Source: a virus. From it: a stretch of 30,940 nt of DNA. Location of the stretch: positions 1 through 30,940 of the IMG/VR virus record IMGVR_UViG_3300047380_000289; one strand, written 5' to 3'. Of the stretch, positions 1-17,078 are shown one piece after another; within the stretch, counting starts at the first letter, position 1, and each line of letters opens with the position of its first letter. The notes under the pieces were generated by a model that was given only the letters and a program-made list of their open reading frames with translations, searched no databases and was not told where the DNA came from. The translations under genes were made by a program, and so were the position numbers.

Positions 1-2160
1 GATGCACCTACTGCACCTTCATCACCTACTCCACCTTGAACACCTTTAGGGCCTTGAACGCCTTTAGGACCTTGAACACCTTTAGGACCTTGACCGCCAG
101 TTTCACCTTTTTGACCTTTAGGTGATAGTCCAATTATACCTTTTATACCTTTAGGACCTTGAACACCTTTAGAACCTTGAATACCCTTATCACCATCAGC
201 GCCAGAAGCACCCGATGGTCCTTGAGCGCCCGTTTGACCTTTTTGACCTTTAGGTGATGCACCTACTGCACCTTCATCACCTTGTGGGCCTTGAACACCT
301 TTAGGACCTTGTATACCTTTAGGACCTTGGGGGCCAGTATCTCCTTTAGGACCAGTAGCACCTTTTTGACCAGGAGCAGATGAACCTTGTGGGCCAGTTA
401 TACCTTTAGGACCTTGGTCACCAAGTGGGCCTTGAGGGCCAGTATCTCCTTTAGGACCAGTAGCACCTTTTTGACCTGCTGGTGATGGGCCATTTACACC
501 TTTAGGACCTTGAACACCTTTAGGGCCTTGAACACCATCTTCACCTTGACCACCAACAGGACCTTGAAGGCCAGTAGCTCCTTTTTGGCCAGCAGCACCT
601 TTAGGTGATGCGCCTACGGCACCTTCATCACCTACTCCACCTTGAACACCTTTAGGGCCCTGAACACCTTTATCACCATTGTCACCAGATGGTCCTTGAG
701 CACCTTGTGGGCCAGTTTCACCTTTTTGACCTGCAGGTGATGGACCAACTGCACCTTGTGGACCTTGAACACCTTTAGGACCTTGATTTCCTGAATTACC
801 TTGAGCCCCCTTGGAGCCAGTAGCTCCTTTTTGACCAGCAGCACCTTTAGGTGATGCACCTACTGCACCTTCATCACCTTGTGGGCCTTGAACACCTTTA
901 GGACCTTGTATACCTTTAGGACCTTGGGGGCCAGTAGCACCTTGAGGGCCAGTAGCTCCTTTTTGACCAGGAGCAGATGAACCTTGTGGGCCAGTTATAC
1001 CTTTAGGACCTTGGTCACCAATTGGACCTTGGGGGCCAGTAGCACCTTTAGGTCCAGTAGCTCCCTTTTGACCCGCTGGCGATGGGCCAGTTGCACCGGT
1101 GGGGCCTTGAACACCTTTAGGACCTTGAACACCTTTAGAACCTTGAACGCCCTTAGGGCCTTGTGGACCAGTTGCACCAGTTTCACCTTTTTGACCTTTA
1201 GGTGATGCACCTACTGCGCCTTCATCACCTTGTGGGCCTTGAACACCTTTAGGACCTTGAACACCCTTATCCCCATTAGCACCAGATGGTCCTTGAGCAC
1301 CTTGTGGGCCAGTTTCACCTTTTTGGCCTGCAGGTGATGGACCAACTGCACCTTGTGGACCTTGAACACCTTTAGGACCTTGATTTCCTGAATTACCTTG
1401 TGGGCCAGTAGTACCTTTAGAGCCAGTTGCACCAGTTTCACCTTTTTGACCTTTAGGTGATGCACCTACTGCACCTTCATCACCTTGTGGGCCTTGAACA
1501 CCTTTAGGACCTTGTATACCTTTAGGACCTTGGGGGCCAGTAGGACCTTGAGAGCCAGTAGCTCCTTTTTGACCAGCAGGTGATGGGCCAGTTGCACCTT
1601 GTGGACCTTGAACACCTTTAGGGCCTTGAACGCCTTTAGGACCTTGAACACCTTTAGGGCCGGTTGAGCCAGTAGCTCCCTTTTGACCAGCAGCACCTTT
1701 TGGTGATGCACCTACTGCACCTTCATCACCTTGTGGGCCTTGAACACCTTTAGAACCAGCAGCACCAACGTCTCCGACACCACCAGATGGTCCTTGAGCA
1801 CCTTGTGGGCCAGTTGCACCTTTTTGACCTGCTGGTGATGGTCCAGTTGCACCTTGTGGTCCTTGAACACCTTTAGGACCTTGGTTTCCGGAATTACCTT
1901 GAGGACCGGTGGGGCCAGTTGCACCTTGGTCACCACCAGGAGATGGGCCGGCTGAACCTTTTGGCCCTTGAGGTCCCGTTGAACCCGATGCACCTTGGGG
2001 ACCAGTAGGACCTTGTCCACCAGTAGGACCTTGTGCGCCAGTTGAACCTTTTGCTCCTTCTAATCCATTAGGACCTTGACCACCAGTACTACCCTTATAC
2101 CCCTTATTATCATTACCTTTTTGACCCTTTTGTCCTGCTAGACCGGCAGGACCTGGTGAA
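1..2160 (-). repeat. Collagen-coding repeat with periodic four-residue interruptions
   Basis: This is a Gly-X-Y coding repeat. Breaks of the G-xxxx-G type recur every 102-132 bases, near 1, 125, 256, 375, 485, 607, 737, 853, 973, 1079, 1204, 1336, 1459, 1583, 1705, 1837 and 1939. The GASPKG-type break near 1, 607 and 1204, and near 256, 853 and 1459, reveals a larger unit of about 600 bases. Confidence 0.85.
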
Positions 2161-2873
2161 GTATCCGAATCTCCACCTGGAGAAATACCACATTGTTCTG
2201 CAAGAACGATACCATGGAACGCATCTGTGTCTTCTCCTGTAAATACACAATTGTCGGGAGCTCTATCTGGTATTGTTCCGTCTTCATCGAATACGGAGTC
2301 GTAACAAAGGGTAGAGTTTGGGCCAGGATCTACATCAAGCATATATCTAGCACCATAGTACTGATAGCCGGTAGCTGGGTCACAACTGAAAATATCATAT
2401 CCAGGTGGGTTGTGAACTATGTACCCATCTGCTAAGTAAACATCAATGTCTTCAATAGCAATGGTATGTATGGATTGGTTTTGTATTTCGTATGCTGAAG
2501 TGATTAGTTCTTCGACTATACCACTATCGGTGTACTTTACTAAATAATCAGAATTTAAATTAACAGTATTAGCAGGTGTAAAGTAATACGAACCACTCGA
2601 ATCTTTAATTAAGATTTTTTGATGTTGTGATACTGTAAGGTCACCACTATTGAATTCGATGACACTACCACTATGGGTTGCTTCAAATACAACACTGGCT
2701 ACGCCAAGTGAGGTTGAAGATATATCAGTAGAAGACCAATTTCTAAAGTCTTGTTCATTTAAACCTAAACCTGGTAATACAACACCACTTACTGATGACC
2801 CACTTTGTAGAGTGTTAATCGTAACTGATGAACTATTTGGTAATCTTACGAGTTGTGTATTTAATCCTGCCAT
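1..2873 (-). CDS. Collagen-like fibre protein with N-terminal Hint-like domain (3' end outside window)
   Basis: The frame opens at the ATG at 2873 and stays open to the window edge, so the C-terminus is missing. Residues 1-155 look like a Hint fold: a block A-like start (TQLV, then SVTINTLQSG), a block B-like stretch with a retained His (TVSQHQKILI), and a block F/G ending in DVYLADGYIVHN at 154-155. The residue after that Asn is Pro and the Cys1 position is the initiator Met, so protein splicing is not expected. Residues 156-237 contain several cysteines. From about residue 238 the protein is Gly-X-Y collagen repeat rich in GQKG, GPKG and GPQG. Regular breaks of the type GPSPAG, GASPKG and GSSAPG leave four residues between glycines. 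The start lies 18 bases beyond the stop of the upstream collagen gene. The likely role is a trimeric tail or head fibre. The Hint call is by eye. Confidence 0.8.
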   Translation of the reverse strand, partial: MAGLNTQLVRLPNSSSVTINTLQSGSSVSGVVLPGLGLNEQDFRNWSSTDISSTSLGVASVVFEATHSGSVIEFNSGDLTVSQHQKILIKDSSGSYYFTPANTVNLNSDYLVKYTDSGIVEELITSAYEIQNQSIHTIAIEDIDVYLADGYIVHNPPGYDIFSCDPATGYQYYGARYMLDVDPGPNSTLCYDSVFDEDGTIPDRAPDNCVFTGEDTDAFHGIVLAEQCGISPGGDSDTSPGPAGLAGQKGQKGNDNKGYKGSTGGQGPNGLEGAKGSTGAQGPTGGQGPTGPQGASGSTGPQGPKGSAGPSPGGDQGATGPTGPQGNSGNQGPKGVQGPQGATGPSPAGQKGATGPQGAQGPSGGVGDVGAAGSKGVQGPQGDEGAVGASPKGAAGQKGATGSTGPKGVQGPKGVQGPKGVQGPQGATGPSPAGQKGATGSQGPTGPQGPKGIQGPKGVQGPQGDEGAVGASPKGQKGETGATGSKGTTGPQGNSGNQGPKGVQGPQGAVGPSPAGQKGETGPQGAQGPSGANGDKGVQGPKGVQGPQGDEGAVGASPKGQKGETGATGPQGPKGVQGSKGVQGPKGVQGPTGATGPSPAGQKGATGPKGATGPQGPIGDQGPKGITGPQGSSAPGQKGATGPQGATGPQGPKGIQGPKGVQGPQGDEGAVGASPKGAAGQKGATGSKGAQGNSGNQGPKGVQGPQGAVGPSPAGQKGETGPQGAQGPSGDNGDKGVQGPKGVQGGVGDEGAVGASPKGAAGQKGATGLQGPVGGQGEDGVQGPKGVQGPKGVNGPSPAGQKGATGPKGDTGPQGPLGDQGPKGITGPQGSSAPGQKGATGPKGDTGPQGPKGIQGPKGVQGPQGDEGAVGASPKGQKGQTGAQGPSGASGADGDKGIQGSKGVQGPKGIKGIIGLSPKGQKGETGGQGPKGVQGPKGVQGPKGVQGGVGDEGAVGA
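2409..2873 (-). other. Hint-like domain, degenerate, of the left collagen protein
   Basis: This encodes residues 1-155. The block order and size resemble a mini Hint domain, and it ends in VHN before Pro-Pro. The block B His is present (SQHQK). Met occupies the nucleophile position, and Pro follows the terminal Asn. It is weaker than the domain in the neighbouring gene and may be a purely structural relic. Confidence 0.55.
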
Positions 2874-2891: not shown

Positions 2892-5800
2892 TTAGTATGA
2901 ACCACTTACGTACATATGAAGTACATAAGTACTACCACCATTATTAAATTTAAGTACACCTCTCGTAGTATCCCACGTCAATCCGGGAGATACATTTTCA
3001 ATTGTAGTACCAAGAGCAGAAATACCTTTTTGACCTTTAGCGCCTTGTAGGCCGGTTTGACCTTTTTGACCTTTAGCACCTTCAAATCCAGTTTGACCTT
3101 TTTGACCTTTATCACCTTGAGGACCCACATTACCTTGGGAACCAATATCACCTTGAGGGCCAGCAACACCTTGAGGGCCAATTATACCTTTTTGACCTTT
3201 ATCACCTTGAGGGCCGGTATCACCTTGAGCACCTTGGTCACCTTGTGGGCCTGTTCCACCAGTTGGACCAGTTGCACCTTGGTCACCTTTTTGACCCTTT
3301 TCACCATCTGGACCTGTTCCACCTTTTTGACCTTTATCACCTTGTGGGCCAGTTACACCTTGAGGACCTTTATCACCTTGTGGGCCAGTAGCACCTTGAG
3401 GGCCATCAGCACCTTGAGGGCCATCAGCACCTTGAGGACCAGTTTGACCTTTTTGACCTTTATCACCTTGAGGGCCAGTTACACCTTGAGCACCTTGGTC
3501 ACCTTGTGGGCCTGTTCCACCAGTTGGACCAGTTGCACCTTGGTCACCTTTTTGACCCTTTTCACCATCTGGGCCTGTTCCACCTTTTTGACCTTTATCA
3601 CCTTGTGGGCCAGTTACACCTTGAGGACCTTTATCACCTTGTGGGCCAGTAGCACCTTGTGGACCAGCAACACCTTGGGGGCCATCAGCACCTTGAGGAC
3701 CAGTTTGACCTTTTTGACCTTTATCACCTTGTGGGCCGGTATCACCTTGAGCACCTTGGTCACCTTGTGGGCCAGTTCCACCTGTTAAACCTTGAGCACC
3801 TTGGTCACCTTTTTGACCCTTTTCACCATCTGGTCCTGTTCCACCTTTTTGACCTTTATCACCTTGTGGGCCAGTTACACCTTGAGGACCTTTATCACCT
3901 TGTGGGCCAGTAGCACCTTGAGGGCCATCAGCACCTTGAGGACCATCAGCACCTTGAGGGCCAGTTTGACCTTTTTGACCTTTATCACCTTGTGGGCCGG
4001 TATCACCTTGAGCACCCTGGTCACCTTGTGGGCCTGCAACACCTTGAGGTCCATCAGCACCAGTTTCACCTTGAATACCCTGTGGGCCTTGTGCACCTTG
4101 AGCACCTTTTTGACCTTTTCCACCTTGTGGGCCAGTTACACCTTGAGGACCTTTATCACCTTGTGGGCCAGTAGCACCTTGTGGACCAGCAACACCTTGG
4201 GGGCCATCAGCACCTTGAGGACCAGTTTGACCTTTTTGACCTTTATCACCTTGTGGGCCAGTTACACCTTGAGCACCTTGTGCACCTTGTGGGCCAGTTC
4301 CACCTGTTAAACCTTGAGCACCTTGGTCGCCCTTTTGACCTTTATCACCATCTGCGCCTGTTCCACCTTTTTGACCTTTATCACCTTGTGGGCCAGTTAC
4401 ACCTTGAGGACCTTTATCACCTTGTGGGCCAGTAGCACCTTGAGGGCCATCAGCACCTTGAGGGCCTGTTGCGCCAGTTCCACCTTGTGAGCCGGTAGCT
4501 CCCTTTTGACCTTTTGGTTGAGTTGGACCGGTTGGGCCTACCGCACCTTGTGGGCCGGTATCACCTTGAGGACCTGTTGCGCCAGTTCCACCTTGTGAGC
4601 CAGTAGCTCCCTTTTGACCTTTAGGGCCTGTTGGGCCAGTAGCACCTTGTGGGCCTGTCCCACCTTGAGGACCTGTTTGACCTTGCGGACCTACTACACC
4701 TTGAGGACCTGTTGAACCAGTTCCACCTTTTTGACCTTTTCCACCTTGTGGGCCAGTAGCACCTTGAGGGCCTTTAGCACCTTGTGGGCCAGTAGCACCT
4801 TGAGGGCCAGTTGAGCCAGTAGAACCTTTTCCACCTTGAGCACCAGTTCCACCTTGTGAGCCAGTAGCTCCTTTTTGACCTTTAGGGCCAGGATTTCCTT
4901 GAGCACCTTGAGGGCCAGTTAAACCAGTAGGTCCGTTTATACCCTTATCACCTTGTCCACCTTGAGCACCAGTTCCACCTTTTTGACCTTTATCACCTTG
5001 TGGGCCAGTAGCACCTTGTGGGCCTTTAGCACCTTGCGGGCCAGTAGCACCTTGAGGTCCATCTGCGCCAGTAGGACCTGTTGCGCCAGTTCCACCTTGT
5101 GAGCCAGTAGCTCCTTTTTGACCTTTTGGTTGTGTAGGGCCCGTTGGACCAGTAGCACCTTGGGGACCGGTTACACCTTGAGGACCTGTTGCGCCAGTTC
5201 CACCTTGTGAGCCGGTAGCTCCTTTTTGACCTTTAGGACCGGTTGGGCCAGTAGCACCTTGTGGGCCAGTAGCACCTTGTGGGCCTGCTCCACCTTGAGG
5301 ACCTACCCCACCTTGAGGACCGGTTGAACCAGTTCCACCTTTTTGACCTTTTCCACCTTGTGGGCCAGTAGCACCTTGAGGGCCTTTAGCACCTTGTGGG
5401 CCAGTAGCACCTTGAGGGCCAGTTGAGCCAGTAGAACCTTTTCCACCTGTTGCACCAGTTGGGCCTGTTGAACCAGTAGCTCCTTTTTGACCTTTAGGGC
5501 CAGGATTTCCTTGAGCACCTTGAGGGCCAGTTAAACCAGTAGGTCCGTTTACACCTTTAGCACCTTGTGAACCTGTTCCACCTTGTGAGCCGGTAGCTCC
5601 TTTTTGACCCTTTCCACCTTGTGGGCCAGTAGCACCTTGAGGACCCGTAGAACCTTTTGGACCATCAGCACCTTGGGGACCGGTTGCACCAGTAGGACCT
5701 GTTGCGCCAGTTGGGCCTGTTGAACCAGTAGCTCCTTTTTGACCTTTAGGGCCTGTTGGGCCAGTTCCACCTTGTGGGCCAGTAGCACCTTGTGGGCCTG

Positions 5801-6734
5801 CTCCACCCTGTGGACCTACTCCACCTTGAGGGCCTGTTGAGCCAGTTCCACCTTTTTGACCTTTATCACCCTGTGGGCCAGTAGCACCTTGTGGGCCTTT
5901 AGCACCTTGAGGACCATCAGCACCTTGTGGTCCTTTTGAACCAGTGGAACCCTTTCCACCTGTTGCACCAGTTGGGCCTGTTGAGCCAGTAGCTCCTTTT
6001 TGACCTTTAGGGCCAGGATTTCCTTGAGCACCTTGAGGGCCAGTTAAACCAGTAGGTCCGTTTACACCTTTAGCACCTTGAGGGCCTGTTCCACCTTGAG
6101 GGCCTGTTGAACCTTTGGGGCCGGTTGGGCCAGTTGCACCTTTAGGACCAGTTGCACCATTGTTACCAGTTGGGCCTTGAGGTCCGGTTGGGCCGGTAGA
6201 ACCACCAGGTCCTTGTGAACCAGTAGCTCCCTTTTGACCCTGTGCACCTTGAGGTCCTTGAGATCCAGTAACACCTTTATTACCAGCCGTACCCTTTTGA
6301 CCTTTAGCACCAGTTGGACCAGTTGGGCCGGTATTATGGAAGAGTAATTGACCTACATAATAATTGTGGTCAGGTTCTACTTCTATACTTACTATATCTA
6401 ACGATTCTTCTACATATTCTAATGATGTGATGTGTAGGTCGTTGTGTAATTCTTTTTGTTTGTTGAATGCATTTATTGGTGAAACCCACTCACCCATTAG
6501 GGTTAAGATTTTAGCATCAACTGATGATTTTAGTTTAGACCCATCTGAAAGAGTGAATTCTAAATAGGAATCTATGGACCGCGTTCTTACCGAAACAACT
6601 TTGTTATCCCTAACACCTACTCCATGTATATCAAAACCTTTTACTACATCACCAACTTTAATGTCACCAAGTGTTTGGAAACTCCCATTGATGTCTATTA
6701 AGGTATCTTTATGTAAACCGTGTATTAATTCCAT
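2892..6734 (-). CDS. 1280-aa collagen-like fibre protein with N-terminal Hint domain
   Basis: Three parts are visible. Residues 6-134 read as a Hint (intein/Hedgehog-type) domain: block A with TLIDINGS and [12 protein letters not shown], block B-like [14 protein letters not shown] with GEWV, and block F/G with [13 protein letters not shown] and LLFHN. His133-Asn134 is followed by Thr135, as at a C-terminal splice junction. The expected Cys1 is Gly6 and the block B His is Ala, so splicing should be dead, while Asn-dependent C-terminal cleavage could remain. Residues 136 to about 1237 are Gly-X-Y repeats, roughly 365 triplets, with two PTQPKG breaks. The last 43 residues form a short non-collagen tip ([14 protein letters not shown]). 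Higher-order repeats of 87 and about 170-204 residues are present. The gene starts 13 bases after the upstream fibre gene. The function is inferred to be a long fibre shaft. Confidence 0.88.
3186..4470 (-). repeat. 261-bp tandem repeat within collagen coding sequence
   Basis: The plus-strand string AGTTACACCTTGAG or its start occurs at 3351, 3612, 3873, 4134 and 4395, exactly 261 bases (87 codons) apart. Flanking sequence such as the TCACCATCTG and ACCTTGGTCACC stretches follows the same spacing in several copies. Outer limits are approximate. The copies differ at scattered bases, mostly keeping Gly codons. Confidence 0.85.
4730..6066 (-). repeat. Long-period repeat (612 and 513 bp) in collagen coding sequence
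   Basis: A distinctive non-Gln block ([16 protein letters not shown]) is encoded three times. The plus-strand string GGATTTCCTTGAG begins at 4891, 5503 and 6016, giving spacings of 612 and 513 bases, both multiples of three. Between these anchors the modules vary by whole Gly-X-Y triplets. Limits are approximate. Confidence 0.75.
6333..6719 (-). other. Hint (intein-like) domain of the 1280-aa collagen protein
   Basis: This encodes residues 6-134. The signatures are block A ([17 protein letters not shown]), a block B-like region ([10 protein letters not shown]) and blocks F/G ([21 protein letters not shown] followed by Thr). Its size of about 129 residues suits a Hint domain without a homing endonuclease. 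Cys1 and the block B His are replaced, but the terminal His-Asn is intact. Confidence 0.72.
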
Positions 6735-11882: not shown

Positions 11883-14800
11883 TTATGGTGTAGAATTATC
11901 AGGTCTAATGTCTAATAATATATTTGATGAACCGGCTACTGGATTTACTGTTGATATTATAATATAATCATCAAATCCATTTACTGCTGAATCTAAGGTT
12001 ATCTTGTGTATATAACTTTGTTCAGTAGTACCTAATCCACTACCTATATCTGCGTTGTCAACAGCTACCTCTAAGTTAGAATAACCATTTGAATTGTAAC
12101 CATCACCCATAATTGTAGGTACATTACTCATCGAAGACCCACTTGGGATAATTATAGCGACACGGTGTCCTGAATTCTTATTCATTCTACCAAAGGATTC
12201 GCTAATATCATATAAGTCACTCATTGATTTGGAATTCAACAAAGTTGCTGTATAAGAACTACCAAAACTATAAGATAGACTTGTTCCACCCAAACTTGAT
12301 TGTATTATATCAGCAAATCCGAATCCACTATATACAGTAGCGGTTGATAGTGTTGAAGGAACTGCGTTTGTTGCGGCTGAATATCCAAGGGTATTATTGT
12401 AGTTTGTAGAAGACAACCCAATATCATAAATATAAACAATTGGGGATGCTGCTGGAACTGCTCCAATTGATGATGTTCTTGGGGTGTTTACAAAATCCTC
12501 ACCATATGCATCGTTAACTGAGACCATGTAATGTAAATCAGCTTGACTTGTAACTGAATTGTCAGCGGCGTTAATAAAGTATGAAGATGAGTTTACATTT
12601 TGTGAGTCCAATGCTACCTTAGATGCGTCTCTACCACTAATAGAAGCGCTAAATGGTGTATCGTTTTCAGTATCACTTATAGTAAATGACCCCAACTTAG
12701 TACCGGCTGAAACAGGTGCGTTTACAGTTTCATTACTAGCAAATGTTACACTTGGGTTTACATTATTTCTAACTTCAATTGTTATAGTCTCTGCCCCTGC
12801 GTTTCCATATTGGTCAACCCATGTTATAGGTGCTGTGAAGTTTGCTCCATTTACGTATGAACCACTTACATTATCTTCAATAGTTAATATACCAGTTGAA
12901 GTTACGTGTACAAGCGAACTAACAGTTGCAAAATTTTGCTCGGATTGACCCCCATAATCTGGAGAATAATTTACAGATAGTTGTGCGGCTGAACCTATCC
13001 CATCGGTATCAGTTGTGATGTTAGAACCACTTAGTGCGGATTCTATTATGTTAAATGAACTTACAGTTAAACTACCACCACCTGCTTGTGATATGGTAAT
13101 TGCATCAGAGTATACTCCTTGGTTAAATCCATGTACATCTTTAACATTTGCGTTATAATTGTATGTTCCTGCTGCTAATGTTCCGTTTGCACGAATCTCA
13201 AATGAGTTACCACCAATATAAGATGACGAAAGACTCGATGCGTTAGTACCACTTAAATTAAATGTGTTGATATTTAAAGAATCACTCTCAATATCACCCC
13301 ATGTTAATGTGGTTAGCAATGCATCATCAATCGCTAAGTTTGTATTTAAATTAGCAGTGGTTTGTGTATCACTTGTTACACTTGGTGCGTTATTCGGAGT
13401 AACACTTATTGTGATTGGTTGTGAATTTGGATTACCATATTGGTCTGACCATCCGATGGTCGATGTAATAGTGGAACCATCTACATTACTACTACCACTA
13501 ATATTATTTCCAACTGTCAGTACACCAGTCGATGAACCAACTGAGATAAATGGGTTGTCTGAAGTAAAGTTTTGTGCAACCGGCGACCCATAACTCGGTG
13601 AATACGTTACACTCAAAGTTTTAGCAGTACCAATACCAGTTGTGGTATTTGTAATACCATCGCCATTTGTAGCAGATTCAATAATAAACAAATTACCAGG
13701 AGATGTTAGAGTACCATTGTCAGCTTGTGCGATTGTGATGTCATCTTTATAAACACCAGTTCTAAATCCATGTTCATCTTTGATACTTGCTGTGAATGAA
13801 ATATCTCCCGCCGATTGGTTACCATCTGCATATAATCCAAAATTATTAGAACCATCGTATGAACTTGATAAGTTAGAAGCGCCAGTGCCTGTTAAAGTGA
13901 ATGAAGATACATTCAATGCATCACCTTCAGTATCAGTCCACTTTATAGTGGATAATAGATTACCATTAGTTGCCTGATTGGTATTTCTATTTGTAGAAGT
14001 AAGTTCTGCGGCTGTAGGGGCGTTATTGATTGTTAGAGTAATACTAACTGAACCACTACCTATGTTATCAAATTGGTCTCTATAAGTAATATTTGAACTA
14101 ATTGTTCCTGGATAGTCATCACCACTACCACTAATGTTAGTCCCAACACTCACATTACCATTACTCGCGACACTAAGTTGTGCGTTCGATGATGTGAATG
14201 ATGCAACTGCTGCTGAATTATATTGTGGTGAGTATGTTACTGACAACTTAGCCTGAGTTCCAGTTCTACCATTTGAGTTAGTAACAACATTATCACCAGT
14301 TTCAGCCGATTCGATTACATAAAATACACCATTTGCACCAGGAGTACCAAGTCCCGCTTCAACGATTGTAAATGAAGAACCCGATGTTGAGATATTACCA
14401 TAACTATCAGCGATACTTGCAGTAAACTCGTAAGTAGTAGACCCACTCAAATTGGTTAAAGCACTTACTTCATAAGCATCACTATTTCGTGATGCAGTTA
14501 ATTGACCACTTGGGTCAGTAAATGAGAATTCACTATGGTCAATAGTATCACCAATACCAAATTGAGGTTCCGTGAATGAAATTACACTTAATATATTTGA
14601 TGGTCTAGCACCATTTGTGTTTAGATTAGCAGATGTATCAGTAAATACGATTGAGTATGGCTGATTATCAGTAATCGTTAGAGTATGGTCTCTATATTGT
14701 TTTGTAGTTTCAAATGAAGTTTCAGATGCAGTGATTTGTATAGCCACAGTGTCACTATCTGCGAAGTGTAAGTTACCACTAATAGCAGTATCCACTTCAA

Positions 14801-17078
14801 GAGTTACACTTGAACCCGTATAACTTGTTGCGCTATTTTGTTGGAATCTAACATATCCACTTGGTACACTATTAACTTCCCACATTTGAGATACAGCTGA
14901 AGTAAATGTTATATCACCTGAAGCGTATCCATTTGAATTGGTTGTTAAATTTTTTCCAGTCAATGCACCTTCGTGGACATAGTAAGTACCACCATTTACA
15001 CCAATACTTGAAGCAGCATCGTCTGCGATTGGAATTGTAATCAATGCACTTGCAGAATCTATGTTATAAGCATCTCCGACATTTACTCTATACACATACC
15101 TATTTGCGATATCTGAGTTTAAGAGTACTGAAGACTTACGAGAAACAGCCCCTGCGATGTTCATTTCGAATGGGTCTGAGTTAGGGTCGGTTAGTGATGT
15201 ACCCCCAAGAGATGACGTGATATTTGGATTTGAAATGTCACTTCCAGAATGGGCCGATACCAATGTAAAGTCCTTATACAATATTGTATTAGCAGGATTA
15301 CTATTATCAGTAGCAGTAATACTACCAACAGAAGTACCATCCGATGAGTTTTCGTTTAAACCTGATAACGATTGATTTTGTATTCCTGGACCTAAGTTAT
15401 CAACTACCTCTACTCTGAATGGTAGGTGTGTTATATTTGCGACATCGTAACCTAATTCGTAATTTGCATCTGATGCAGTGATTATAAATGAGTATGACGT
15501 TAAACTCTCGTAATCTAAAGAACTTGTTACTTGAACAAGGTCTATATATTTTGATACTCCAGTCGTACCAATTGTAAATGAGAAGTGGTCAGTTCCTAAA
15601 CTACCTGTTCTAATTGTTAGTGTATCACTATCGGTATCAGTAACATAGACTCTATATTGAGACTTAGTTTCAGCAGATGATGATTCATCTAAAGATGCGG
15701 TAAATGCCGTAATTGTATTTCCACTTACACCATCAATTCTAAAAGATGGTGCTGAGTTTGGGGTTACACGAATGTATATAGTTTTTTCAACTACATTATT
15801 TTGACCATCGGTTACTTTAATTAAGAATGGGTGTGAACCTGATCCTGGAGTATTATCAGTATTCATAGCTCTACTCGAAGAAACCGTAGCTCTAACTACA
15901 CCAGTAGTAGATACCTCAAAGAAGTTATCACTATACGAGTCTTGAACTGCCCACGTTTGTGTATCACCCGGAGTAACATCGGTTGCTATAAGTTGACCAA
16001 TAAATGCACTACTGCCAGTAAATTCAGGAATTGTAAATCCATGTGACGTAATTACAGGTGGGTCACCAAATGAACCACCACCGCCACCACCACTACCAAA
16101 GCCACTCGATGCAGCGGATGCTGATACAGCAGTTCTAAAGAACACAGATGCTGTGTCTAAGAATACAGTAGCGTCACCAGTATTAGCACCACCACCAATT
16201 CCATCACCTGCAATAACTGATGTGATATCACCAGAACCACCACCGGCTCCAAATCCACTTGCAGCAGCAGATGCTGAAATGTATGTATCGTCTATGATTG
16301 CTTGTACTTGTGCGGATGAGGATATATTACCACTTGCGTTAGCTAACTCTACCCAATTACCACCATGAGCGAAATATGCTTTACCAGTTGCATGAACGTG
16401 AGCAAACATACCATGGTAACTTGCAGCATTTGGTAAGTCAGATAATTGAGAATAAACATTCCCAAAGAGGACTTTATTACCACCCATGTCTAAATCAGCT
16501 GATGTGATTTGAGTTGAACTACTAATTAATCCACTTGGTACATTTGTTAGTTGTGTAAAATCAGATGTGCCACCACCAGCACCAAACCCACTTTCAACAG
16601 CAGAACGAGATACTTCGGTATCAAAGTTTGTGATACTTGATGTATCAATCGAACCTGTAAATGAAGTTGCGGTAATAGAGCCAGTTACATCTAAATCTGC
16701 ACTTACTTTGTATTTACCACCCACAGTAGTCCATATGGATGAACCACCTCCACCACCTCCACCGGAAAGTGAGGATAAGTCAACTGTATTACCTTCGGTA
16801 ATTGTTAACTCATTACTTGCTTGATTAAACGAAAGAGTTTGAGAATCAGAACCAGTATCATCGGTTAAATTTTCCAATGTATTAATTCTGCTATCGAATG
16901 ATGCCGAATCATTTGGATATGTTACTTCTCTAAACCTATTATTAGCGGTTATAGCATTTTTTTGAAATGCTGAAATAGTAGTAGGTTTATTAGTTATTTG
17001 TGTATAGCTAACCTGGCTGGATGCTGAAATAACTCCATAAAATGAACCACTAAATGAACCTGTGTAGTCAAATGACAT
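11883..17078 (-). CDS. 1731-aa cadherin-like repeat adhesin / fibre protein
   Basis: Residues 1-340 are fibre-like, with a Gly run at 106-112, three SGFGxGGG linkers (near 165, 275 and 327) and a small domain with QLSDLPNAASYHGMFAHVHA and GNWVELAN. From about 340 to 1540 the protein is a chain of cadherin/Ig-like beta domains, with strand-linker signs such as NSAPSF, NNAPT, NNAPSV and DTDSDTL. Four related modules of about 212-220 residues start near 697, 917, 1129 and 1341, each with an ESA-type start and a YSPxY strand. Residues 1540-1731 are unlike the rest and probably form the tip. There is no enzyme motif. GGAG precedes the ATG, and a promoter-like element lies 34 bases upstream. The likely job is host binding or surface adhesion; whether it decorates tail or head is unknown. 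Confidence 0.8.
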   Translation of the reverse strand: MSFDYTGSFSGSFYGVISASSQVSYTQITNKPTTISAFQKNAITANNRFREVTYPNDSASFDSRINTLENLTDDTGSDSQTLSFNQASNELTITEGNTVDLSSLSGGGGGGGSSIWTTVGGKYKVSADLDVTGSITATSFTGSIDTSSITNFDTEVSRSAVESGFGAGGGTSDFTQLTNVPSGLISSSTQITSADLDMGGNKVLFGNVYSQLSDLPNAASYHGMFAHVHATGKAYFAHGGNWVELANASGNISSSAQVQAIIDDTYISASAAASGFGAGGGSGDITSVIAGDGIGGGANTGDATVFLDTASVFFRTAVSASAASSGFGSGGGGGGSFGDPPVITSHGFTIPEFTGSSAFIGQLIATDVTPGDTQTWAVQDSYSDNFFEVSTTGVVRATVSSSRAMNTDNTPGSGSHPFLIKVTDGQNNVVEKTIYIRVTPNSAPSFRIDGVSGNTITAFTASLDESSSAETKSQYRVYVTDTDSDTLTIRTGSLGTDHFSFTIGTTGVSKYIDLVQVTSSLDYESLTSYSFIITASDANYELGYDVANITHLPFRVEVVDNLGPGIQNQSLSGLNENSSDGTSVGSITATDNSNPANTILYKDFTLVSAHSGSDISNPNITSSLGGTSLTDPNSDPFEMNIAGAVSRKSSVLLNSDIANRYVYRVNVGDAYNIDSASALITIPIADDAASSIGVNGGTYYVHEGALTGKNLTTNSNGYASGDITFTSAVSQMWEVNSVPSGYVRFQQNSATSYTGSSVTLEVDTAISGNLHFADSDTVAIQITASETSFETTKQYRDHTLTITDNQPYSIVFTDTSANLNTNGARPSNILSVISFTEPQFGIGDTIDHSEFSFTDPSGQLTASRNSDAYEVSALTNLSGSTTYEFTASIADSYGNISTSGSSFTIVEAGLGTPGANGVFYVIESAETGDNVVTNSNGRTGTQAKLSVTYSPQYNSAAVASFTSSNAQLSVASNGNVSVGTNISGSGDDYPGTISSNITYRDQFDNIGSGSVSITLTINNAPTAAELTSTNRNTNQATNGNLLSTIKWTDTEGDALNVSSFTLTGTGASNLSSSYDGSNNFGLYADGNQSAGDISFTASIKDEHGFRTGVYKDDITIAQADNGTLTSPGNLFIIESATNGDGITNTTTGIGTAKTLSVTYSPSYGSPVAQNFTSDNPFISVGSSTGVLTVGNNISGSSNVDGSTITSTIGWSDQYGNPNSQPITISVTPNNAPSVTSDTQTTANLNTNLAIDDALLTTLTWGDIESDSLNINTFNLSGTNASSLSSSYIGGNSFEIRANGTLAAGTYNYNANVKDVHGFNQGVYSDAITISQAGGGSLTVSSFNIIESALSGSNITTDTDGIGSAAQLSVNYSPDYGGQSEQNFATVSSLVHVTSTGILTIEDNVSGSYVNGANFTAPITWVDQYGNAGAETITIEVRNNVNPSVTFASNETVNAPVSAGTKLGSFTISDTENDTPFSASISGRDASKVALDSQNVNSSSYFINAADNSVTSQADLHYMVSVNDAYGEDFVNTPRTSSIGAVPAASPIVYIYDIGLSSTNYNNTLGYSAATNAVPSTLSTATVYSGFGFADIIQSSLGGTSLSYSFGSSYTATLLNSKSMSDLYDISESFGRMNKNSGHRVAIIIPSGSSMSNVPTIMGDGYNSNGYSNLEVAVDNADIGSGLGTTEQSYIHKITLDSAVNGFDDYIIISTVNPVAGSSNILLDIRPDNSTP
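12453..14990 (-). repeat. Four diverged ~212-220-codon cadherin-like modules
   Basis: These are protein-level repeats of the adhesin, with module starts near residues 697, 917, 1129 and 1341. The conserved pieces are a hydrophobic strand before ESA/EGA, a Gly-rich turn, LSVTYSP, a Gly-Asn turn before NISGS, WxDQYGN and NNAPS. Modules two to four are the most alike. Confidence 0.7.

What the first reader, a model, noticed from the sequence alone, without database searches (positions are those of the whole stretch)
6333..6734. Hint (intein-like) domain fused directly to a collagen fibre
The first 134 residues of the 1280-aa collagen protein carry Hint blocks in order: [34 protein letters not shown] and LLFHN before Thr. 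The domain ends exactly where Gly-X-Y begins. Cys1 is Gly6 and the block B His is Ala, while the C-terminal His-Asn-Thr is intact. In inteins, Asn cyclisation alone can cut the C-terminal junction. I infer a self-removing N-terminal cap that frees the collagen chain, perhaps after trimerisation or attachment, rather than splicing. I do not know of a described phage fibre with this design.
Basis: partly seen in the sequence, partly recalled or inferred. Interest (0 to 1): 0.88.

Follow-up and report, generated by a model that had tools for sequence, protein, structure and literature searches.

The report
Intein-like cap on phage collagen fibre
A family of uncultured, T4-like, probably marine phages makes a long collagen-like fibre whose first 134-148 residues are an intein-type (Hint) domain that has lost the parts needed to cut in front of itself but keeps every residue needed to cut behind itself, so it looks like a natural self-removing protein tag, although no cleavage has been shown.

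Summary
Residues 1-134 of the 1280-aa ORF (2892-6734, minus strand) are a Hint domain, shown by profile search (PDB BIL2 E 1.8e-9, gp41-1 intein 1.5e-7), a confident AlphaFold2 model (pLDDT 89) and Foldseek (top 50 hits are inteins, BIL or Vint domains). It is not a one-off: 20 distinct domains from environmental phage contigs (relatives 40-84% identical) all sit at the protein's N-terminus and all run straight into Gly-X-Y. Position 1 is Gly, Ala or Ser, never Cys. The block B His is never His. The C-terminal cleavage set (F-block His, penultimate His, Asn, +1 Thr) is invariant, 20/20, and conservation is concentrated at the two ends that build the Hint active site. The next gene is a second collagen fibre with a more decayed Hint ending VHN (+1 Pro). 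About 50 records of cultured Erwinia, Dickeya and Yersinia jumbo phages carry the opposite layout: collagen fibre with a C-terminal Hint that keeps Cys1. So Hint plus collagen is not unique; the N-terminal, C-cleavage-only form appears undescribed. Best reading: an N-terminal cap removed by Asn cyclisation at Asn134/Thr135 (about 0.6). Main rival: a non-cleaving adaptor or structural domain.

The parts
6333..6734 (-). F1 Hint domain, residues 1-134 (position 1 = Gly6; block B = [10 protein letters not shown]; block F = [13 protein letters not shown]; block G = LLFHN)
   Evidence: profile search, AF2 + Foldseek, alignment of 20 domains
6330..6335 (-). predicted cleavage site Asn134 | Thr135
   Evidence: HN|TGP in 20/20 distinct domains, although Thr is 7-44% of Y positions in the same collagens
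3024..6332 (-). approximate Gly-X-Y (collagen-like) region, residues about 135-1237, two short TQP breaks
   Evidence: translation
2892..3023 (-). short conserved C-terminal segment ([43 protein letters not shown]), candidate tip or trimerisation segment (role inferred)
   Evidence: similar ending in every relative with a complete C-terminus
3..2873 (-). second collagen gene (open at window edge): F2 Hint-like domain residues 1-155 (about 2409-2873) ending VHN|P, a Cys-containing linker, then Gly-X-Y
   Evidence: hhalign of F2 profile to the cultured-phage Hint profile 97.3%, E 2e-11, and to F1 91.5%, E 9e-7

Best explanation
The domain is a Hint (intein/BIL-type) module specialised for C-terminal cleavage only. 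Shown: the fold; the N-terminal position with at most 3-7 residues before position 1; loss of Cys1 and of block B His in all relatives; invariance of F-block His123, His133, Asn134 and Thr135; direct junction to Gly-X-Y. Inferred: after folding, Asn134 cyclises to a succinimide, cuts the Asn134-Thr135 bond and releases a roughly 15-kDa cap, leaving a collagen chain that starts with Thr-Gly-Pro. Also inferred, more weakly: the cap keeps the N-terminal end of the chain apart or inert until the fibre trimerises or is mounted. Three Hint domains joined to a thin triple helix without a linker would be crowded, and in the Hint fold the C-terminal residue lies in the middle of the domain.
For: Catalytic set: the review PMC4031507 names His F:13, His G:6 and Asn G:7 for Asn cyclisation and Thr B:7, His B:10, Asp F:4 plus residue 1 for the N-terminal site. 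Here the first set is 20/20 invariant; of the second, residue 1 is G/A/S, B:10 is A/I/S/V/L, F:4 is Ser, and only B:7 stays Ser/Thr. In one intein Asp F:4 holds back Asn cyclisation (same review), so its loss fits an uncoupled C-terminal reaction. Conservation sits at both active-site ends: mean column entropy 0.65 (residues 1-12) and 0.55 (114-134) against 1.50 (13-113); 10/21 against 8/101 invariant columns, Fisher p 5e-5, relatedness not corrected. +1 Thr 20/20. Engineered precedent: Ssp DnaB C1A with a 3-residue native N-extein border releases its C-extein (PMC4339811).
Against: No biochemical or virion mass-spectrometry evidence. In the neighbouring F2 family VHN is also invariant although +1 is often Pro, which from general intein knowledge disfavours Asn-cyclisation cleavage; so HN conservation alone does not prove cleavage. 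A C1A change slows Asn cyclisation in Ssp DnaB (PMC4339811). In the class 2 KlbA intein, mutation of His B:10 and Asp F:4 also lowers C-terminal cleavage (PMC4031507). Removing the cap would leave the fibre without an obvious N-terminal attachment domain. Ile4-His5, ahead of position 1, are invariant, which cleavage at Asn134 alone does not need. Four of the 20 domains, including the most distant ones, were found only with a DNA pattern that required HNTGP.
Confidence: 0.6

Rival explanations
1. Non-cleaving Hint used as a structural N-terminal domain: it attaches the fibre to the baseplate or nucleates the collagen trimer, and the HN ending is kept for folding or binding.
For: Phage fibres usually attach through their N-terminal domain (general knowledge); the F2 neighbour keeps VHN with +1 Pro and loses the F-block His; Cys1 and block B His are already lost, so decay to a structural role is plausible.
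Against: The joint invariance of F-block His, His-Asn and +1 Thr and the active-site-centred conservation are more than a scaffold needs; there is no linker between the domain and the triple helix.
Confidence: 0.27
2. A residual splicing reaction: Thr135 (or Ser116 at F:4) attacks the bond before position 1 and joins the short N-terminal peptide (MELIH) to the collagen chain.
For: Ile4-His5 before position 1 are invariant; +1 Thr is invariant; class 2 inteins splice without Cys1 (PMC4031507); position 1 is Ser in four of the domains.
Against: His B:10 and Asp F:4, needed for N-site activation in class 1 and class 2 (PMC4031507), are absent in all; class 2 uses Cys+1 and Ser G:6, class 3 uses Cys F:4; in L008 the likely start codon leaves only Met-Ile-His as N-extein.
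Confidence: 0.08
3. Dead remnant with no function, kept by hitch-hiking.
For: Loss of N-terminal catalytic residues.
Against: Conserved as an intact, confidently folding domain down to about 40% identity with invariant active-site residues.
Confidence: 0.05

Closest known systems
Type A bacterial intein-like (BIL) domains, e.g. C. thermocellum BIL 2lwy; BIL2 of the T. thermophila BUBL1 locus (6y75, 6tmm)
   Same: Hint fold, His-Asn end, best profile and Foldseek matches; cleavage products dominate in type A BILs (PMC4031507)
   Different: Type A BILs start with a nucleophile at position 1 and have a flanking N-terminal protein; here position 1 is G/A/S, the domain starts the protein, and +1 is Thr
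C-terminal Hint of collagen-containing virion proteins in cultured jumbo phages (Erwinia Alexandra, Yoloswag, Y3; Dickeya AD1; Yersinia fHe-Yen9-02; PHROG 38766) and of an Alcaligenes phage tail protein
   Same: Same superfamily (hhalign 98.4%, E 6e-15), collagen in the same polypeptide, HN end, phage tail or virion protein
   Different: Hint lies at the C-terminus after an intervening domain, keeps Cys1 and, in the collagen-containing members read, block B His, and is followed by only about 10 residues
Engineered C-cleaving inteins (Ssp DnaB C1A)
   Same: Position 1 replaced, short N-extein border, only the C-terminal bond cut by Asn cyclisation (PMC4339811)
   Different: Man-made; block B His not reported as changed
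Pretoxin Hint (PF07591)
   Same: Hint placed directly before a C-terminal payload (general knowledge); 12 of 15 relatives match the profile at E<=1
   Different: Matches of single sequences are weak; the payload here is a collagen fibre
Intramolecular chaperone auto-cleavage (ICA / Peptidase S74) domains of phage tailspikes
   Same: Self-cleaving assembly domain on a trimeric phage fibre (works alike, from general knowledge)
   Different: Other fold, at the C-terminus, other chemistry

Membership tests
Hint superfamily | Hint (horseshoe) fold and blocks A, B, F, G in order | tested here: met
Canonical class 1 intein | Cys or Ser at position 1 | tested here: not met
   Gly 13, Ala 3, Ser 4 of 20; the window has Gly
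Canonical class 1 intein | Block B T-x-x-H | tested here: not met
   B:7 Ser 19/20 (Thr once), B:10 never His
Canonical class 1 intein | His-Asn end and C/S/T at +1 | tested here: met
   HN|T 20/20
Class 2 intein | Ala1 with Cys+1, Ser G:6, His B:10, Asp F:4 | tested here: not met
   Thr+1, His G:6, no His B:10, Ser F:4
Class 3 intein | Cys at F:4 (the class 3 nucleophile) | tested here: not met
   F:4 is Ser in 20/20; the window domain has no Cys
Type A BIL domain | Hint with His-Asn end | tested here: met
Type A BIL domain | nucleophile at position 1 and no nucleophile at +1 | tested here: not met
   position 1 G/A/S, +1 Thr
C-terminally self-cleaving Hint | cleavage at Asn134-Thr135 | not testable with these tools
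   needs expression or mass spectrometry
Collagen-like phage fibre | long Gly-X-Y repeat in a phage structural module | tested here: met
   (gp23, portal, terminase in the window)

The most novel reading that the evidence does not exclude
The Hint cap is an assembly switch: cleavage is coupled to trimerisation or mounting, and the conserved Thr135 and the residues before position 1 take part in joining the fibre covalently to the short N-terminal peptide or to another virion protein, a natural protein-ligation step in phage assembly.
Probability: 0.08. Interest if true: 0.85.

Novelty: new variant of a known kind. Interest (0 to 1): 0.62.

Why it matters
It would be a natural counterpart of the engineered C-cleaving intein tag, used on a virus fibre, and a self-processing step at the N-terminal end of a phage fibre. 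It shows that Hint domains and collagen fibres have been combined in at least three layouts in phages, most of them annotated only as hypothetical or structural proteins, and it gives one directly testable bond (Asn134-Thr135).

Tried and rejected
Single-sequence Pfam and PHROG searches were too weak alone. tblastn of F1 against 50,697 phage records found no F1 homologue, only weak partial matches including inteins; genome contigs gave none. AlphaFold2 of the F2 domain with 5 sequences failed (pLDDT 33) and is not used; its first hhalign with few sequences was not significant (0.4%) and became so with a deeper alignment (91.5%). Search for a Cys1-bearing Hint partner elsewhere in the phage records: only the collagen-fibre Hint loci were found, no separate one, though the records may be partial. 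A longer N-extein or missed start was made unlikely by in-frame stops 1-4 codons upstream in most relatives. Class 2 and class 3 splicing were considered and disfavoured. The ten paper searches found no description of such a fibre (among them).

Full report
What is there. The ORF at 2892-6734 on the minus strand encodes 1280 residues. Residues 1-134 (6333-6734) are followed without any linker by Gly-X-Y repeats and a short conserved end. The window carries T4-type portal, terminase, prohead protease, gp23 and PhoH genes; its gp23 is 55-57% identical to those of Flavobacterium phages immuto and Microcystis phage Mel-JY01. The host is unknown; Bacteroidota is a guess from gp23 only, and a marine origin is likewise a guess.

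Is it a Hint domain. Yes. A profile of 20 sequences matches the solved BIL2 domain of the Tetrahymena BUBL1 locus (E 1.8e-9), gp41-1 intein (1.5e-7) and a Clostridium BIL domain (1.9e-7) (an earlier profile of 15 gave the same picture). AlphaFold2 gives pLDDT 89 and all 50 Foldseek matches listed are inteins, BIL or Vint domains. All 15 members scanned match Pfam Intein_splicing at E<=1.

Is it conserved. Searches of viral contigs and a DNA pattern for His-Asn-Thr-Gly-Pro-x-Gly-x-x-Gly give 20 distinct domains, all at the N-terminus, all fused to collagen. The pattern search required HNTGP and so cannot be used to argue for Thr in the four sequences it alone supplied; the other 16 did not depend on it. 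Position 1 is Gly (13), Ala (3) or Ser (4). Block B His is Ala, Ile, Ser, Val or Leu. Ser116 (F:4), His123 (the F-block His), His133, Asn134 and Thr135 are invariant. Mean column entropy is low at the two ends that form the Hint active site (0.65 and 0.55) and high between (1.50). Thr is only 7-44% of Y positions in the same collagens, but 20/20 at +1.

Neighbour. The next gene (3-2873, open at the window edge) is a second collagen fibre. Its first 155 residues are a more diverged Hint ending VHN, with +1 Pro, Ala, Phe or Val in collagen fibres and Val or Asp in about 2000-2170-residue non-collagen proteins. The tandem order holds in G004-G008. Profile comparison links it to the cultured-phage Hints (97.3%, E 2e-11) and to F1 (91.5%, E 9e-7), and a search with the cultured-phage profile finds both F1 and F2 loci.

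Cultured relatives. Fifty-five phage records, mostly Erwinia jumbo phages, hold a related Hint. In the ones read, Erwinia, Yersinia and Alcaligenes phages have a collagen-containing protein of about 480 residues with a Hint at the C-terminus, Cys1, block B His and HN intact, then about 10 residues. An uncultured phage (LR756508) and phage NCTB have a C-terminal Hint on non-collagen proteins. None has the N-terminal layout.

Mechanism. By the roles reviewed in PMC4031507, the residues for Asn cyclisation are kept and those for N-terminal activation are mostly lost, as in the engineered C-cleaving Ssp DnaB C1A intein (PMC4339811). I therefore favour C-terminal self-cleavage that frees a collagen chain starting Thr-Gly-Pro (0.6). 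Cleavage itself, its timing and its purpose are inferred. The main weakness is that the F2 family keeps VHN with +1 Pro, so the motif can be conserved where cleavage is unlikely; a structural, non-cleaving role (0.27) remains open.

Known or new. It is a Hint domain of BIL-like kind but fits none of the intein classes or type A BIL strictly (membership table). Hint plus collagen is present, though seemingly undiscussed, in cultured phages; the N-terminal C-cleavage-only form was not found in the phage records or papers searched.

Noticed in passing
window 3-2873 (-): Second collagen fibre with its own N-terminal Hint-like domain (VHN|Pro), conserved in tandem with the first; the +1 residue varies (P, A, F, V).
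   Followed up: yes
L132:2813-4255, L133:2825-4258, L134:2861-4303, L137:2032-3462: Collagen-containing virion proteins of cultured phages (mostly jumbo) end in a Hint domain with Cys1, block B His and HN intact plus about 10 residues; such a domain could cut, splice off or conjugate the fibre end.
   Followed up: partly
L125, L126, L131 (match from 6001): About 2000-2170-residue non-collagen, Cys-containing proteins start with the F2-type Hint domain, so the module is not tied to collagen.
   Followed up: partly
L010, L011, L012, L015, L017, L094 (insert between blocks B and F): One group of F1 domains carries a Cys-rich insert (e.g. SCGCGDCKCG), possibly a metal site.
   Followed up: no
window 11883-17078 (-): 1731-aa protein with cadherin-like repeats (Pfam Cadherin E 1.2e-7), probably another adhesin or fibre.
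   Followed up: no
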